Shown in pieces: positions 14,015-19,563 of a stretch of DNA of 38,895 nucleotides. The DNA is from an uncultured Oscillospiraceae bacterium (GTDB lineage Bacteria; Bacillota; Clostridia; Oscillospirales; Oscillospiraceae). Where the stretch lies: contig CANQNS010000016.1 of the NCBI GenBank assembly GCA_947625285.1, positions 1 through 38,895 on the forward strand, given 5' to 3'. The notes under the pieces were generated by a model. It worked only from the letters and a program-made list of their open reading frames with translations. It was not told where the DNA came from and searched no databases. Position 1 is the first letter of the stretch. The number at the start of each line of letters is the position of its first letter. A program made the translations under genes and the position numbers.

Positions 14015-14179
14015 AGCCTCGCAGAGTTCGGCTCCGCAGAGCCGAATAGAGTGGGATCATTTTTTCCGGGGACATGCGCCTCGGAAAAAATTCTTATCGG
14101 CCTGCAAACGTGCGAGCGCAGCGAGTGCGCTGCGGCAGGCCGCAGCCCTCTCGATGAAAAGGCTATGCCTTTTCATCGA
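14015..14179 (-). repeat. Structured intergenic element, copy 1
   Basis: This is a 165-bp element with four helices. Helix A is 14027-14034 with 14039-14046 (8 bp). Helix B is 14059-14068 with 14082-14091 (10 bp, 13-base loop gggacatgcgcct). Helix C is 14098-14105 with 14135-14142, with an inner 6-bp hairpin (14115-14120 with 14126-14131). Helix D is 14151-14163 with 14167-14179 (13 bp). Loops and linkers match copy 2 at 16727-16894, while helix arms differ in paired fashion. On the minus strand helix D overlaps the tsaB stop codon. It may be a structured RNA or a mobile palindromic repeat. Confidence 0.75.
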
Positions 14180-14861
14180 TGCGGGAAAGTCGTTCCCTTT
14201 CGGCCTGGCTGAGCCGCAGATAGGCCGGCAGCAGCTCGTCCGCGCTGACCGGCTTTTTGTCCATGGCGGCCAGGGCCACGCCACGGGCGTTTTGCACCCG
14301 CAGAGGTTCCGGGGCGATGAACACGGTCACCTGCTCCCGGTCCAGCGCGCCGTAGCACAGCTCCGCCCCGTCGCCCAGCAATATCCAGGGCTCCTGGCGG
14401 GCCACCAGCTCGCTCTCCAGCTCCCGGATGGAGATGGCCCGGTCCTCGGTCAGCCGCACGGGTCTGCCCCCGTCCACGGTGAACAGGGCGTTATAGACCT
14501 GTCCCCGCCGGGCGTCCATGCAGCAGCACAGCATCTGCCCGTCCAGCACCGGCCCGCCGCAGGCCATGGCCTCCAGGGTGGACACCCCCACGGCCGGTAT
14601 CTGCAGGGCCCAGCACAGGCCCTTGGCCTCCGCCAGACCGATCCGCAGCCCCGTGAAGGAGCCGGGCCCCCGGCTCACCGCCACCCGGTCCAGGTCCCGG
14701 ACGGTCCGGCCCAGGTTTTTCAGCATATCCTCCGCCATGGGCAGCAGGGTGCGGCTGTGGGTCAGGCCGGCGTTCTGGATGGAGAACGCCAGCATCCTGT
14801 CGTCCTCAAATACCGCCGCGGAGGCGGCCTTGGCGGAGCTCTCCAAAGCCAGGGTCAGCAT
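14163..14861 (-). CDS. tsaB: tRNA threonylcarbamoyladenosine synthesis protein TsaB
   Basis: TsaB is the non-catalytic partner of TsaD in the complex that makes t6A37 on ANN-decoding tRNAs. This 232-residue protein has the ASKHA N-terminus [17 protein letters not shown], the conserved [13 protein letters not shown] near residue 35, and [19 protein letters not shown] near 64-82. It lies in the order tsaD, tsaE, tsaB, with its start inside the end of tsaE (overlap of 7 bases). The last codons and TAG stop form one arm and the loop of a perfect hairpin, part of the structured element. Confidence 0.93.
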
Positions 14862-15283
14862 AGGTCCGGCCCTCCTTCCATGGTTATCTCTCTGGTATCA
14901 TCGCCGGTCTTTTCAAAGCGGACGGCGATCTCGTCCCCCTCGAAGGCGCCGGGCACGTTCTCGCTCCACTCCACGGCGCACACGCCGCCCCGGGCCAGAT
15001 AGTCCTCCCAGCCGATGTCGAACAGCTCCTCCGCGCCGGCCAGCCGGTACATGTCGAAATGGAACAGGGACCGGGGGCTGCCCTCATACTCGTTGACGAT
15101 GGTGAAGGTGGGACTGGTGACGGCGGCGTCCAGGCCCATGCCCCGGGCCATGCCCCGGACGAAGGCGGTCTTGCCGCAGCCCAGGTCCCCGTAAAGGGCC
15201 ACCACCGACCCGCCGGGCAGGTCCTTTGCAAACCGGGCCCCCAGGGCCTCCGTCTCCGATTCGGAATGTGTGGTATATGTCAT
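14855..15283 (-). CDS. tsaE: tRNA threonylcarbamoyladenosine synthesis ATPase TsaE
   Basis: This 142-residue P-loop ATPase is required for t6A synthesis and is thought to reset the TsaB-TsaD complex. Walker A is GDLGCGKTAF near residues 32-41. The conserved PTFTIVNEY is near 59 and the FHFDMYRL motif near 73, followed by VCAVEWSEN (Walker B-like W and E). Length and motif order are as in YjeE/TsaE. It starts one base after the tsaD stop and overlaps tsaB. Confidence 0.94.
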   Translation of the reverse strand: MTYTTHSESETEALGARFAKDLPGGSVVALYGDLGCGKTAFVRGMARGMGLDAAVTSPTFTIVNEYEGSPRSLFHFDMYRLAGAEELFDIGWEDYLARGGVCAVEWSENVPGAFEGDEIAVRFEKTGDDTREITMEGGPDLC

Positions 15284-15284
15284 C

Positions 15285-16289
15285 TCAAAGCTCCATGGTG
15301 GCGTAGGCGTTCAAATCGGGCCCGGCGGTGTGGCCCGCCAGATATTCATAATACCCCTGTGCGCCGATCATGGCGGCGTTGTCCCCGCAAAGGCGCAGAG
15401 GCGGCACGAAAAGGGTCCGGCCGGCCTTCCGGCAGGCGGCCTCAAAATCGGCCCGGATGCGGGAATTTGCGGCCACGCCCCCCGCCACGGCGATGTTTTT
15501 ATAACCCAGGGCCTCCGCCGCCCGCATGGTCCGGCCCACCAGGGTCTCGCTGACCGCCCGGCACAAACTGGCGGCCAGGCCGGCCTTATCCAGCTCCGCC
15601 CCGGTCTGCTCCGCGTGGTGGACGATGTTCACCACCGCGGTCTTCAGGCCGGAAAAGCTCATGTCGTAAGGATCGTCCCCGTGGACCGCCGGCCGGGGCA
15701 GGTCGTAGGCCCGGTCGTCGCCCTGCCTGCCGAGGTCATCGATGGGCTTGCCGCCGGGATAGCCCAGACCCATGACCCTGGCGGATTTGTCGAAGCACTC
15801 CCCCGCCGCGTCGTCCCGGGTCCGGCCCAGGACGGACATATCGGTGTAGCCCCGCACGTCCGCCAGCAGGGTGTTGCCCCCGGAGATGGCAAGGCACAGA
15901 AACGGCGGCTCCAGCTCCGGATAGGCCAGATAGTTGGCGGCGATGTGGCCCCGGATATGGTGGACCGGGATCAGGGGCACGCCCAGGGCCAGGGCCGCGC
16001 TCTTGGCGAAGTTCACCCCCACCAGCACCGCGCCGATGAGTCCCGGCGCGTAGGTGCAGGCCACCGCGTCGATATCGGCGCGGGTCCTGCCCGCGGTCCG
16101 CAAGGCCCGGTCCGCCAGCAGGGTCACCACCTCCAGGTGGCTGCGGGCCGCGATCTCCGGCACCACCCCGCCGTAAAGCTGGTGCAGGGCCACCTGGGAG
16201 AATATCTCGTCGGCCAGGACCTTCCGGCCGTTCTCCACCAGGGCCACGGCGGTCTCGTCGCAGGAGGATTCAACGGATAAGATCAGCAT
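15285..16289 (-). CDS. tsaD: tRNA N6-threonylcarbamoyltransferase TsaD
   Basis: TsaD transfers the threonylcarbamoyl group to A37 of tRNA. The 334-residue protein has MLILSVESSCDETAVAL at the N-terminus, VPEIAARSHLEVV near 45, and the metal-binding HHIRGHIAA (two histidines, H-x3-H) near 109. VAGGVAANSRIR is near 268, and the C-terminal GDNAAMIGAQGYYEY carries the metal aspartate. An upstream GTG (16295) overlaps the rimI stop as GTGA and could also be used. The ATG gives the usual family N-terminus. Confidence 0.94.
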   Translation of the reverse strand: MLILSVESSCDETAVALVENGRKVLADEIFSQVALHQLYGGVVPEIAARSHLEVVTLLADRALRTAGRTRADIDAVACTYAPGLIGAVLVGVNFAKSAALALGVPLIPVHHIRGHIAANYLAYPELEPPFLCLAISGGNTLLADVRGYTDMSVLGRTRDDAAGECFDKSARVMGLGYPGGKPIDDLGRQGDDRAYDLPRPAVHGDDPYDMSFSGLKTAVVNIVHHAEQTGAELDKAGLAASLCRAVSETLVGRTMRAAEALGYKNIAVAGGVAANSRIRADFEAACRKAGRTLFVPPLRLCGDNAAMIGAQGYYEYLAGHTAGPDLNAYATMEL

Positions 16290-16291
16290 GG

Positions 16292-16717
16292 TCACAATAC
16301 CGCCGTCATGATGATGGCGTCCTCTCTCGGTCTTTCGTAGTAATTGGTCCGGCGTCCGGCCGGGGCGAAGCCGTGCTTATCGTACAGGGCGATGGCCGCC
16401 CGGTTGGAGGCGCGCACCTCCAGGGTGATGAAGGCGAGGCCCTCCGCCCGGCCCCGGCGGAACGTCTCCGCCAGGAGGGCGTCCGCCGCGCCCTGCCGCC
16501 GGCGGTCCGGGACCACGGCGATGCTGTCCAGGCTGCCCTGGTCCAGCACGCTGTCCAGAGCGGCGTAGCCCAGAAAGGCATGGTCATCCGCCTCCGCCAC
16601 CAGCAGCTTGTTCAGCCGCCGGCGGATGAGATTCTCCGGCCAGGGGTCGGAGAAGCAGGCCTGCTCCAAAGCCGTGATGGCGGGGATATCGTTCGCTGTC
16701 GCGTCGCGGATCAACAT
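16292..16717 (-). CDS. rimI: Ribosomal protein S18-alanine N-acetyltransferase RimI
   Basis: This 141-residue GNAT acetyltransferase has an acceptor part with RDATANDIPAITALEQACFSDPW and the acetyl-CoA loop VVPDRRRQGAADALL near 74. It also has the RimI-type signatures LEVRASNRAAIALYDKHGFAPAGRRTNYYE near 103-132. RimI acetylates the N-terminal alanine of ribosomal protein S18 in enteric bacteria and is commonly linked to tsa genes. A GTG three codons upstream is possible, but GCGAGG is better spaced for the ATG at 16717. That GCGAGG lies in the conserved end of the structured element. Confidence 0.9.
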   Translation of the reverse strand: MLIRDATANDIPAITALEQACFSDPWPENLIRRRLNKLLVAEADDHAFLGYAALDSVLDQGSLDSIAVVPDRRRQGAADALLAETFRRGRAEGLAFITLEVRASNRAAIALYDKHGFAPAGRRTNYYERPREDAIIMTAVL

Positions 16718-16726
16718 TGTTTCCAC

Positions 16727-16894
16727 AGCCTCGCAGAGTTCGCGCCTGGAGGCGCGAATAAATTTGGATATGATTTCCGGGGATATGCGCCTCGGAAATC
16801 ATTCTTTGCGGCTCACGAAGTGTACGAGCGAAGCGAGCGCGCGTATGTGAGCCGAAGCCTTCTCGATGGAAAGGAACTTGTTCCTTTCCATCGA
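16727..16894 (-). repeat. Structured intergenic element, copy 2
   Basis: This is a 168-bp homologue of the element at 14015-14179. Helix A is 16739-16746 with 16751-16758. Helix B is 16770-16779 with 16793-16802 (13-base loop gggatatgcgcct). Helix C is 16809-16816 with 16847-16854. Helix D is 16863-16876 with 16881-16894. Every helix is perfect although the arm sequences differ from copy 1. It lies directly between the polA stop and the rimI start, and its conserved GAACTCTGCGAGGCT end places GCGAGG in front of rimI. Confidence 0.75.
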
Positions 16895-16895
16895 C

Positions 16896-19463
16896 CTAGT
16901 GCGCGTCCGCCCAGCTCTGGCCGACGCCGGCGTCGGCAATGAGCGGGACGGGATAGGAGACCGTGTTTTCCATCTCTTCCTTCAAAATGGCGGCGGCTCT
17001 GTCCCCCAGGGCGGCGGGACACTCCACGATCAGCTCGTCGTGGACCTGCAGCAGCAGCTTTGCCTCCGGCAGCTCCTTCGCCAGCCGGCGATGGACCCGG
17101 ATCATAGCCAGCTTGATGATGTCCGCCGCGGTGCCCTGGATGGGCATATTGCGGGCCACCCGCTCCCCGAAGGAGCGCAGGTTATAGTTGCTGGCGTGCA
17201 GCTCCGGCAGCGCCCGCCGCCGGCCGAACAGGGTGGAGACATAGCCCAGCTCCTTCGCCCGGGCGATGGTGGTGTCCATGTATTGGCGCACGCCGCTGTA
17301 CTTGGCGAGATAGGCGTCGATATACGCCTTGGCCTCCGCCTGGCTCACGCCCACGTCCTGGGCCAGAGAGAAAGCGGAGATGCCGTACACGATGCCGAAA
17401 TTCACGGCCTTGGCCCGGCCGCGCAGCTCGTGGGTCACCTGATCCAAGGGCAGGCCAAAGACCTGGCTGGCGGTGACGGTGTGGAAGTCCTCCCCGGACA
17501 AAAACGCATCCCGCATGGCGGCGTCGCCGGAGATATGGGCCAGCAGCCGCAGCTCGATCTGGCTGTAGTCCGCGTCCACCAGCACGTTGCCGGGCCCGGC
17601 CACGAACATGCGCCGGATGCCCGCGCCCAGCTTGCGACGGACGGGGATATTCTGCAGATTGGGGTCCCGGGAGGAAAGCCGCCCGGTGTCCGTGACGGTC
17701 ATCTGGAAGGTGGTGTGGATGCGTCCGTCGGGACCGATGGCCTTTTGCAGACCGTCGGTATAGGTGCTCTTGAGCTTCGTCAGCTCCCGGTATTCCAGCA
17801 CCAGCCCCACGATGGGGTGCTTGTCCCGGAGCCGGTCCAGGGTGTCGGCGTTGGTGCTCCAGCCCCGGTGGTTTTTCTTGCCCGCCGGCAGGCGCAGCCA
17901 CTCGAACAGCACCTCGCCCAGCTGCTTGGGGGAGTTGATGTTGAACTGCCCTCCTGCCAGGGTCCATATCTGTTGCTGCAACGCCGCGATGCCCTCGCTC
18001 AGCTCCCGGCCGAAGTCGTACAGGGCCTTCCGATCCACCAAAAAGCCGGACCGCTCCATCTCCGCCAGCACCGGGCACAGGGGCAGCTCGATGTCGTAAT
18101 AGAGCTCGCGCATCCCCAGTGCGTCCAGCTTTTCCGGCAGGACGCCGTATAAGGCCCACACCGCCTCGGCTCCGTCCGGGACCGAGGACCGATCCAGATA
18201 CCGGGCGCACAGCCGGGGAAGGCTGTAGTCAGAGGCGATGGCGTCCAGCAGATACCCGGCCAGAGCCGTGTCAAAGATGAACCCCTCCGCCGGCAGCCCC
18301 TCCGCCAGCAGCAGGCCCATCAGGTCCTTCACGTTATGGCCCAGCTTGGGCTTGTCCGGGGAGAACACCGCCCGCAGAAGGGCGTTGTAATCCTCGCCCC
18401 CGTCGGCCCAGGTCACGTCATAGACCGCCTTGCCGTCGCACAGGCTCAGCCCGTCCAGACCGCCCTCCGCCGCCAGCACGGCCACCCGGTCCGCAGCCTT
18501 GACCGCCCCCAGCGCGGCGGCGATGTCGCCGGCGATATGGGGCAGGGCGGGAGCTGCGGCCGCCGGAGCGTCCTCCCCCGGCGTCAGGCCCCAGCGCTCG
18601 ATGAACCGGCCGAAGCCCAGCCGGCGGCAGATGTCGTACAGCCCGGCCGTGGGATGCAGGGACCAGATATTCTCCTCCGGCGCGAAGTCGATGGGCGCGT
18701 CCCGGCGGATGGTGGCAAGGGCGTAGGAGAGCCGTGCGCTTTCGACGCCCTCGGCCAGTTTTTTCCTCTGGCCCGCCTTGACGGCGGGGTCGTCTATATT
18801 CTCGTACACCCCCTCCAGGGTGGCGAACCGGTGCAGCAGATCCAGGGCGGATTTTTCACCGATGCCCGGCACGCCGGGGATGTTGTCGGAGCTGTCCCCC
18901 ATCAGGGCCTTCAGATCCACCATCCCGGCGGGCTCCAGGCCGTATTCCTCCCGGAACCGGGCGGGGTCGTATTCGATGGTCTCCGTCTGACCCATGCGGG
19001 TCTTGATGTGGATGACGTGGGTAGCGTCGGTGATGAGCTGGAAAGAGTCCTTGTCGCCGGTGACAAGCCGGCAGTTCCAGCCGGAGGCCTCGCACGCGGC
19101 GGCCATGGTGCCCAGCAGGTCGTCCGCCTCCCAGCCCGCCAGCTCGTACCGGCGGATGCCCATGGCGTCCAGCAGCTCTTTCAAAATGGGTATCTGGGTC
19201 TGCAGCTCCTCCGGCATGGGCCTGCGGGTGGCCTTGTAGGCGTCGCTCATCTGGTGGCGGAAGGTGGGCGCGTGGACGTCGAAGGTCACGCACACCGCGT
19301 CCGGGGCGTCCAGCTCCAGCAGCCGCTGGAGGATGGCGATGAAGCCATAGATCCCGTTGGTGGGCGTGCCGTCCGGGGCGTTGAGCATACGGATGCCGAA
19401 AAACGCCCGGTTGACGATGGAGTTGCCGTCCAGTATCATGATCTTTTTTGCCGCTTCGCCCAT
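16896..19463 (-). CDS. polA: DNA polymerase I
   Basis: PolA handles Okazaki-fragment maturation and repair synthesis. The 855-residue protein has an N-terminal 5'-3' exonuclease (residues ~5-290, ILDGNSIVNRAFFG, AGWEADDLLG, TGDKDSFQL). The middle proofreading-like domain lacks the catalytic D-x-E (VAVLAAEGGLDG), as in many Firmicutes. The polymerase domain has motif A VLVDADYSQIELRLLAHIS, motif B RGRAKAVNFGIVYGISAF and motif C QVHDELIVE. The open frame extends 11 codons upstream, but an AAAGG site favours the ATG at 19463. A -10-like TATGAT lies at 19502-19507 on the minus strand. It heads the run of genes toward rimI and tsaD. Confidence 0.95.
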   Translation of the reverse strand: MGEAAKKIMILDGNSIVNRAFFGIRMLNAPDGTPTNGIYGFIAILQRLLELDAPDAVCVTFDVHAPTFRHQMSDAYKATRRPMPEELQTQIPILKELLDAMGIRRYELAGWEADDLLGTMAAACEASGWNCRLVTGDKDSFQLITDATHVIHIKTRMGQTETIEYDPARFREEYGLEPAGMVDLKALMGDSSDNIPGVPGIGEKSALDLLHRFATLEGVYENIDDPAVKAGQRKKLAEGVESARLSYALATIRRDAPIDFAPEENIWSLHPTAGLYDICRRLGFGRFIERWGLTPGEDAPAAAAPALPHIAGDIAAALGAVKAADRVAVLAAEGGLDGLSLCDGKAVYDVTWADGGEDYNALLRAVFSPDKPKLGHNVKDLMGLLLAEGLPAEGFIFDTALAGYLLDAIASDYSLPRLCARYLDRSSVPDGAEAVWALYGVLPEKLDALGMRELYYDIELPLCPVLAEMERSGFLVDRKALYDFGRELSEGIAALQQQIWTLAGGQFNINSPKQLGEVLFEWLRLPAGKKNHRGWSTNADTLDRLRDKHPIVGLVLEYRELTKLKSTYTDGLQKAIGPDGRIHTTFQMTVTDTGRLSSRDPNLQNIPVRRKLGAGIRRMFVAGPGNVLVDADYSQIELRLLAHISGDAAMRDAFLSGEDFHTVTASQVFGLPLDQVTHELRGRAKAVNFGIVYGISAFSLAQDVGVSQAEAKAYIDAYLAKYSGVRQYMDTTIARAKELGYVSTLFGRRRALPELHASNYNLRSFGERVARNMPIQGTAADIIKLAMIRVHRRLAKELPEAKLLLQVHDELIVECPAALGDRAAAILKEEMENTVSYPVPLIADAGVGQSWADAH

Positions 19464-19563
19464 GCTGCCGCACCTTTCCGATCTGCTGTCTGCCATTTTA
19501 CATCATACCATGCTTTTGGGAAAAAAGAAACGGGAAAAGCAAAAATCCTCCCGGGCCGGCCCA

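What the first reader, a model, noticed from the sequence alone, without database searches (positions are those of the whole stretch)
14015..16894. Two-copy structured intergenic element with compensatory changes in all four helices
Copies at 14015-14179 and 16727-16894 share loops and linkers (agcctcgcagagttcg; the 13-base loop gggaYatgcgcct; tctcgatg) but differ in the arms of four hairpins. Helix A CGGCTC/GAGCCG becomes CGCGCC/GGCGCG. Helix B changes TT to GA with AA to TC opposite. Helix C CCTGC/GCAGG becomes CTCAC/GTGAG. Helix D is rebuilt over 13-14 bp. Constant loops with covarying stems are the signature of selection on structure, in RNA or in single-stranded DNA. Both copies lie 3' of a minus-strand gene end and 5' of the next gene. 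I do not recognise it as a named RNA family.
Basis: partly seen in the sequence, partly recalled or inferred. Interest (0 to 1): 0.85.

Follow-up and report, generated by a model that had tools for sequence, protein, structure and literature searches.

The report
Transposon-like hairpin repeat of gut bacteria
The two structured spacers are copies of a small protein-free hairpin element repeated through many gut bacteria of one order; in relatives it often carries the ends of an IS1182-type jumping gene and lies between two copies of a gene's transcription-stop hairpin, which hints at an unusual way of inserting into DNA.

Summary
Both copies (14015-14179, 16727-16894) have four hairpins, constant loops and compensated stems. 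They belong to a large family: 21 model matches in this genome, present in 34 of 35 genomes of the genus and 49 of 345 of the order. Over 95 copies, 20 of 22 base pairs of helices A and B change on both sides. No Rfam family matches.

It is a dispersed element. Of 104 unique copies not known to be from the window's genus, 38 lie between direct repeats of 12 nt or more (window's genus 0 of 44; control 5 of 882). These repeats look like the site's own intrinsic terminator; 22 of 38 contain a strict hairpin. Many outer ends read CAGnnTGTCrAAAAA, as do those of one complete IS1182-family insertion sequence, itself between two copies of a hairpin. I read the element as an IS1182-type MITE whose insertion duplicates the hairpin, probably by attack at the base of a cruciform.

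The window's copies are a derived lineage: no such ends, no duplication, no IS1182 gene found in the genome. There D faces a gene's 3' end in 38 of 38 classified copies, and the other end carries a Shine-Dalgarno-like GAGG. Stems are almost purely Watson-Crick, hinting at DNA-level pairing. Why the A-B-C core is conserved is unknown.

The parts
14015..14179 (+). copy 1 of the element (A-B-C-D), between the tsaB-like gene and upp (both on the minus strand)
14015..14025 (+). constant A end AGCCTCGCAGA; on the gene strand it reads TCTGCGAGGCT with a Shine-Dalgarno-like GAGG
14026..14047 (+). helix A of copy 1 (9 bp, loop CGCA)
14059..14091 (+). helix B of copy 1 (13 bp, loop ACATGCG)
14098..14142 (+). 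helix C of copy 1 (outer stem CGGCCTGC/GCAGGCCG, variable apical part)
14151..14179 (+). helix D of copy 1 (13 bp perfect, loop TAT); the tsaB-like reading frame ends inside it (stop 14163-14165)
16727..16894 (+). copy 2 of the element, between polA (stop 16896-16898) and a GNAT acetyltransferase gene (both on the minus strand)
16738..16759 (+). helix A of copy 2 (loop TGGA)
16770..16802 (+). helix B of copy 2 (loop ATATGCG)
16809..16854 (+). helix C of copy 2 (outer stem CGGCTCAC/GTGAGCCG)
16863..16894 (+). helix D of copy 2 (15 bp perfect), one base away from the polA stop codon
13342..13971 (-). uracil phosphoribosyltransferase (upp), A side of copy 1
   Evidence: PF14681
14163..14861 (-). 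TsaB-like protein (PF00814; the name TsaB is by position, recalled), D side of copy 1
16292..16726 (-). GNAT acetyltransferase (RimI-like by position, recalled), A side of copy 2
16896..19496 (-). DNA polymerase I (polA), D side of copy 2

Best explanation
The two copies are members of an old family of non-coding, four-hairpin mobile elements of Oscillospirales. In relatives the element behaves as a miniature transposon (MITE) of IS1182-family insertion sequences. It often ends in CAGnnTGTCrAAAAA inverted repeats, has a hairpin just inside the right repeat (D, like the IS1182 right end), and in about a third of copies examined still sits between two copies of a locus-specific, terminator-like hairpin. 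Likely mechanism: IS1182 transposase supplied in trans joins the element's ends to the two 5' feet of a terminator extruded as a cruciform, and gap repair then copies the whole hairpin on both sides. In the window's genus the element is a derived, probably older lineage without these ends and without duplications, lodged between a stop codon and the next gene, with D at the stop codon and the A end carrying GAGG next to the following start in some cases. SHOWN: structure and covariation, distribution, flanking hairpin duplications, ends shared with IS1182 copies, orientation bias. INFERRED: the cruciform step, trans-mobilisation, replacement of the lost ribosome-binding site, and any role of the conserved A-B-C core.
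For: Covariation. Copy number and spread. Flanking direct repeats of 12 nt or more: 9 of 38 copies from genomes of other genera, 29 of 66 from named contigs whose genus I did not check, 0 of 44 from the window's genus; 18 nt or more: 8, 22 and 0; mismatched controls 5 and 1 of 882. Palindrome scan of held loci in set gap ranges: 42 duplicated hairpins, 37 around the element's core motif, 31 of these direct; part of those loci had been fetched by the end pattern itself. Of 31 distinct CAGnsTGTCrAAAAA sites, 18 have a perfect hairpin of 7 bp or more ending 0-5 nt upstream, control 45 of 2000. A complete IS1182 element (L354, NF033551 E 3e-115) has the same ends and a duplicated hairpin; an IS1182 gene piece in the window's genus (L311) and an IS1182 remnant (L350) have the same end next to a hairpin. 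Presence, remnant and empty states at the orthologous polA-rimI junction. Orientation: window's genus 38 of 38 classified with the D-side gene facing the element; codirectional 18 to 0 there, 42 to 14 elsewhere, p 2e-4.
Against: In the window's genus 0 of 44 copies have flanking repeats of 12 nt or more and 1 of 44 has TGTCrA within 75 nt of the A end, so IS1182 ancestry of the window's copies is by homology only. Two thirds of the other copies also lack a detectable duplication; of the 38 with one, 19 have TGTCr on the left and 28 YGACA on the right by a loose test. No PF05598 or PF13751 match in G000, nor in G379, G175, G147, G014 and G066, which carry copies. Only one complete IS1182 copy with the hairpin duplication was seen; its two hairpins have inverted loops and no clear T-tract. 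A MITE needs only its ends, so the order-wide conservation of the A-B-C core is not explained. Insertion versus loss at polA-rimI is not polarised by the tree. Movement was not observed.
Confidence: 0.64

Rival explanations
1. A functional structured RNA (3'-UTR or intercistronic regulator, or a small RNA) kept by selection on RNA folding, dispersed early and now mostly vertical.
For: Loops and linkers conserved across genera with covarying stems. In the window's genus the element is next to a gene end and in one orientation in 38 of 38 classified copies, and carries GAGG spaced before an ATG in 7 of 18 codirectional copies against 0 of 20 convergent ones (orthologues among them). A strand-specific R-U wobble in helix B (G-U 53, A-U 25 of 93 cells). 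At polA-rimI, G000 and G010 elements are 96% identical while the flanking genes are 85-89% (other pairs of elements there 70-91%, rimI 71-81%).
Against: At variable positions G-U is nearly as rare as A-C: 24 v 18, 11 v 4, 5 v 2, against about 4400 Watson-Crick pairs; tRNA acceptor stems in held loci gave 5 G-U and 0 A-C of 84 (small). Empty and remnant sites exist. Hairpin duplications in relatives point to insertion. Outside the genus GAGG-ATG spacing is not enriched (5 of 42 codirectional copies with any start, 2 of them ATG). No Rfam match.
Confidence: 0.2
2. The compensated stems arise without selection on structure: mutations in one arm are copied to the other by template switching at hairpins during replication, in an otherwise ordinary repeat.
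For: Almost purely Watson-Crick stems with G-U near A-C; partial tandem copies broken at hairpin loops (C32 and G012 arrays); recalled literature on quasipalindrome correction.
Against: Does not explain loops and linkers conserved between genera, or the fixed R-U wobble.
Confidence: 0.1
3. A REP/BIME-type element moved by a RAYT (Y1) transposase.
For: Palindromic, extragenic, near stop codons; Y1_Tnp is present in 13 of 34 related genomes searched.
Against: No Y1_Tnp in G000, G010 or G014, which have 21, 21 and 24 model matches; terminator duplication is not a feature of REPs as recalled.
Confidence: 0.02

Closest known systems
IS1182-family insertion sequences, in particular IS1272/TnSha1 (PMC5678879 outline and passages, PMC4923244 passages seen)
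   Same: Hairpins and terminators as targets without sequence specificity; transposase family (NF033551 hit of the relative); the cruciform model in PMC5678879 foresees whole-stem-loop duplication as 'pathway b'.
   Different: IS1272 deletes or replaces the stem-loop and makes no duplication; here the hairpin is duplicated. This element encodes no protein and has a conserved structured core.
BOX elements (with RUP and SPRITE) of Streptococcus pneumoniae (PMC3049150 and PMC10969869, passages seen)
   Same: Modular, structured, non-coding dispersed repeats near gene ends, inserting into one another.
   Different: Ends and sequence were not compared here; in the passages BOX is described for S. 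pneumoniae and kin, this family spans an order; the passages seen mention no terminator duplication.
REP/BIME and other bacterial MITEs (review PMC10969869, passages seen; PMC3733652 listing only)
   Same: Small palindromic extragenic repeats with stable secondary structure.
   Different: No RAYT found in the window genome; duplication of whole hairpins in relatives; covarying multi-helix core.

Membership tests
MITE of IS1182-family insertion sequences | terminal inverted repeats shared with an IS1182 element | tested here: met
   Relatives only: CAGnnTGTCrAAAAA on elements and on IS1182 copies L354, L311, L350.
MITE of IS1182-family insertion sequences | these ends present in the window copies themselves | tested here: not met
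   no CAG..TGTCrA at 14015 or 16727; genus 1 of 44 with TGTCrA near the A end
MITE of IS1182-family insertion sequences | palindromic or terminator target, with a footprint | tested here: met
   Relatives: 38 of 104 with repeats of 12 nt or more, 22 of the 38 with a strict hairpin; 37 of 42 duplicated hairpins enclose the core. Window's genus: not met, 0 of 44.
MITE of IS1182-family insertion sequences | moves by IS1182 transposase in trans | not testable with these tools
   needs a transposition assay
REP/RAYT | RAYT (Y1) transposase in the genome | tested here: not met
   0 matches in G000 (97% complete draft)
known Rfam RNA family | score above a family's gathering threshold | tested here: not met
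   gathering; only a tRNA in the window, nothing in 18 loci; E-value mode; one unrelated match of 14.7 bits against a cut-off of 100, none
structured RNA | G-U pairs clearly in excess of A-C at covarying positions | tested here: inconclusive
   40 G-U v 24 A-C in all; stems were found by Watson-Crick scoring
structured RNA | discrete transcript | not testable with these tools
   no RNA-seq
BOX element | boxA/boxB/boxC sequence homology | not tested
   passages of PMC3049150 only

The most novel reading that the evidence does not exclude
The A-B-C core is a new class of conserved structured nucleic acid, RNA or single-stranded DNA, carried by transposon ends through a whole bacterial order. Its stems are freely rewritten as long as they pair, while loops and linkers stay fixed, so the core itself is recognised by something. 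The same family reveals a transposition outcome that I saw only as a drawn hypothesis (PMC5678879): duplication of a whole terminator hairpin by attack at the foot of a cruciform. In the window's genus the element was tamed into an intercistronic module that brings its own ribosome-binding site.
Probability: 0.35. Interest if true: 0.86.

Novelty: new variant of a known kind. Interest (0 to 1): 0.72.

Why it matters
Elements that duplicate a complete terminator leave a readable footprint of structure-dependent transposition, so the cruciform model proposed for IS1272 becomes testable from genomes and in E. coli. The family also offers many copies per genome to separate two causes of covariation, selection on folding and DNA-level palindrome repair. 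It affects annotation: hairpin-rich spacers in gut bacteria can look like unknown regulatory RNAs but be transposon-borne. In operons such as polA-rimI it may alter coupling and translation of housekeeping genes.

Tried and rejected
REP/RAYT: disfavoured, no Y1 transposase in G000, G010 or G014, though 13 of 34 genomes searched have one. Named RNA family: rejected. IS1182 was first set aside because PF05598 was missing in 7 of 11 genomes; PF13751 (matches in 6 of 14) and the ends of its hits brought it back. L340 as an autonomous element: rejected, no transposase recognised among its reading frames (by eye); the 8-kb stretch L347 fetched for it was not analysed. Scan of held loci for autonomous elements by duplicated palindromes: the first scan gave only pairs of A hairpins at long distance, a later one L312/L354. 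Strict pattern search found the element in 14 of 60 genomes, all in the genus; the model searches showed that this undercounts. A tree of 30 rimI proteins did not settle gain versus loss at polA-rimI; 5 of 35 genus genomes were not in it and 6 of its 30 loci lack polA synteny (judged by eye). Gene context rests on a home-made ORF caller: 131 of 158 unique copies classified, 27 left out, 6 of them of the genus. One search left out 10 of 167 copies with short flanks. Literature: ten searches (two returned nothing) listed no paper whose title or shown abstract describes this family; subscription papers and ISfinder were not searchable.
Full report
What is there. The two copies are as described and fold into four successive hairpins. 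Copy 2 lies between polA and a GNAT acetyltransferase gene, copy 1 between a tsaB-like gene and upp, in a run of minus-strand genes. BLAST with copy 1 gives 22 matches in the genome, the query and its own palindrome among them; a covariance model of arms A and B (R1) gives 21. By eye there are shortened copies that keep both ends (L017, L025, L014), a truncated one (L019), and copies at contig ends interrupted by foreign DNA.

Structure. MAFFT alignment A1 of 41 copies, made without a structure: 98.2% of cells paired, 12 of 22 pairs changed on both sides, score 0.390 against 0.142 shuffled. A2, 95 matches in the window and 80 named loci, aligned to the model and therefore leaning to it: 20 of 22 pairs changed on both sides, 441 cells, score 0.602 against 0.174. 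C and D regions also hold many different, well-paired stems, but were not tested on an alignment. In the window's genus stem types recur in different combinations, so module exchange between copies probably adds to point changes.

Spread. 34 of 35 genomes of the genus; 49 of 345 of the order, in 25 of 163 genera; 6 of 391 of the class, where the three hits outside the order are single and weak. The last two searches scored few candidates per genome under stricter filters, so they are lower bounds. That Oscillospirales is the right order name is my knowledge; NCBI files Pseudoflavonifractor under Eubacteriales.

DNA or RNA. Leaving out two wobble positions, A and B show 24 G-U and 18 A-C cells against 1757 Watson-Crick. 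D-region stems show 11 and 4 against 1702, some of them flanking terminators; C-region stems 5 and 2 against 946. Twelve tRNA acceptor stems gave 5 G-U and 0 A-C of 84. This points to pairing kept at the DNA level, but the stems were found by Watson-Crick scoring and the tRNA control is small. The R-U wobble in helix B is strand-specific and speaks the other way.

Mobility in relatives. Among 148 unique copies with adequate flanks, direct repeats of 12 nt or more flank 9 of 38 from genomes of other genera, 29 of 66 from named contigs of unchecked genus, and 0 of 44 from the window's genus; 18 nt or more: 8, 22 and 0. Mismatched controls give 5 and 1 of 882. Of the 38 repeats, 22 contain an exact inverted repeat of 6 bp or more; they are A-richer before the left copy and T-richer after the right one than on the inner sides (0.44 and 0.40 against 0.24 and 0.26), as expected if the hairpin of an intrinsic terminator, without its tracts, was duplicated (examples). 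A scan for duplicated palindromes in the gap ranges 100-350 and 1200-2000 found 42: 33 direct, 4 inverted, 2 ambiguous, 3 with different loops; 37 enclose the core motif, 1 encloses the IS, 4 neither. Part of those loci had been fetched by the end pattern. The pattern CAGnsTGTCrAAAAA occurs 52 times in six genomes; of 31 distinct sites in the fetched loci, 18 have a perfect hairpin of at least 7 bp ending 0-5 nt upstream, control 45 of 2000; one of the other 13 (L320) looks like a chance match inside a gene.

The mobiliser. PF05598 matched 4 of 11 genomes, PF13751 6 of 14. In G060 a complete IS (L354) encodes a 484-aa protein hitting NF033551 transpos_IS1182 at 3e-115, above its cut-off. It starts CAGACTGTCGAAAAAC, ends in a hairpin followed by TTCGACAGTCTG, and lies between two copies of a hairpin that follows a gene end; the loops are inverted and there is no clear T-tract. 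A partial IS1182 gene at a contig end in G017, of the window's genus (L311), and an IS1182 remnant in G220 (L350) have the same end beside a hairpin. Other IS1182-type hits (L348, L351/L314) do not show these ends, and at L349 the pattern belongs to a separate minimal element. G000 has no hit, nor do G379, G175, G147, G014 and G066, which carry element copies.

The window's genus. At the polA-rimI junction (judged by eye on 30 loci), full elements occur in G000, G010, G005, G013 and G011; G009 and G012 have an element with a second element inside; G014, G007 and G025 have remnants; 12 species have none (two of them less surely), G029, sister of G025, among them; G032 and G033 have another repeat; 6 lack synteny. 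The tree does not decide gains from losses. In 38 of 38 classified copies of the genus (6 unclassified) the gene on the D side ends towards the element, 18 codirectional and 20 convergent; among other classified copies 42 codirectional one way against 14 the other, 36 convergent, 1 divergent (p). The A end carries GAGG on the gene strand; an ATG of a long frame follows at 5-11 nt in 7 of 18 codirectional genus copies and 0 of 20 convergent ones, orthologues not merged; outside the genus this is not enriched. I infer that insertion between tightly packed genes is tolerated in the orientation that supplies a ribosome-binding site.

Known kinds. IS1272 and TnSha1 (IS1182 family) insert at hairpins and terminators, delete the stem-loop and make no duplication (PMC4923244, passages; PMC5678879, outline and passages). 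The latter drew whole-stem-loop duplication as a possible pathway. The family described here looks like that pathway. BOX elements are the nearest analogue in design (PMC3049150, passages); the MITE review PMC10969869 was seen in passages.

Limits. No movement, transcript or empty terminator site was observed; the link of the window's copies to IS1182 is by homology of the core only; the function of the core is open.

Noticed in passing
L013 (= L006), L036, L073, L080, L094, L098, L133, L139; also L115, L230, L305: A second structured element (GGGGyCCCC - hairpin - GGGGAGAGGAGGA - variable stem - CCGACGA or GACGACGA) lies inside this element in several copies, apparently replacing a few bases of a hairpin region; in L115, L230 and L305 the printed stretch shows no trace of the first element. 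L013, L036, L073 and L080 were scanned against Rfam without a match.
   Followed up: partly
L020, L027, L046 (all at contig ends): Copies cut by foreign DNA with AAGTGCAACAGGG ends (IS30-like, recalled, not tested) near the same point of the linker between A and B.
   Followed up: no
L102, L105 (polA-rimI of G032, G033): A different hairpin repeat (CTCCCTCTGACGAGGGAGGTGGC...GGAGGGAGAGA) sits at the same junction; its core was not found in the window.
   Followed up: no
L341/L345 (G230): Three tandem 36-bp units, each a CAGCCTGTCGAAAAA end plus a terminator-like hairpin; perhaps minimal forms of the element.
   Followed up: no
L028 (G000 C32), L077/L236 (G012 C14): Tandem partial copies that break near the loop of helix A or B and restart at the A end, suggesting template switching at hairpins.
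   Followed up: no
L319, L323, L325, L330, L338, L346: Variant elements with A arm GCCCTCGGCAGAGTTTTGCCGCC or similar and the same outer ends.
   Followed up: no
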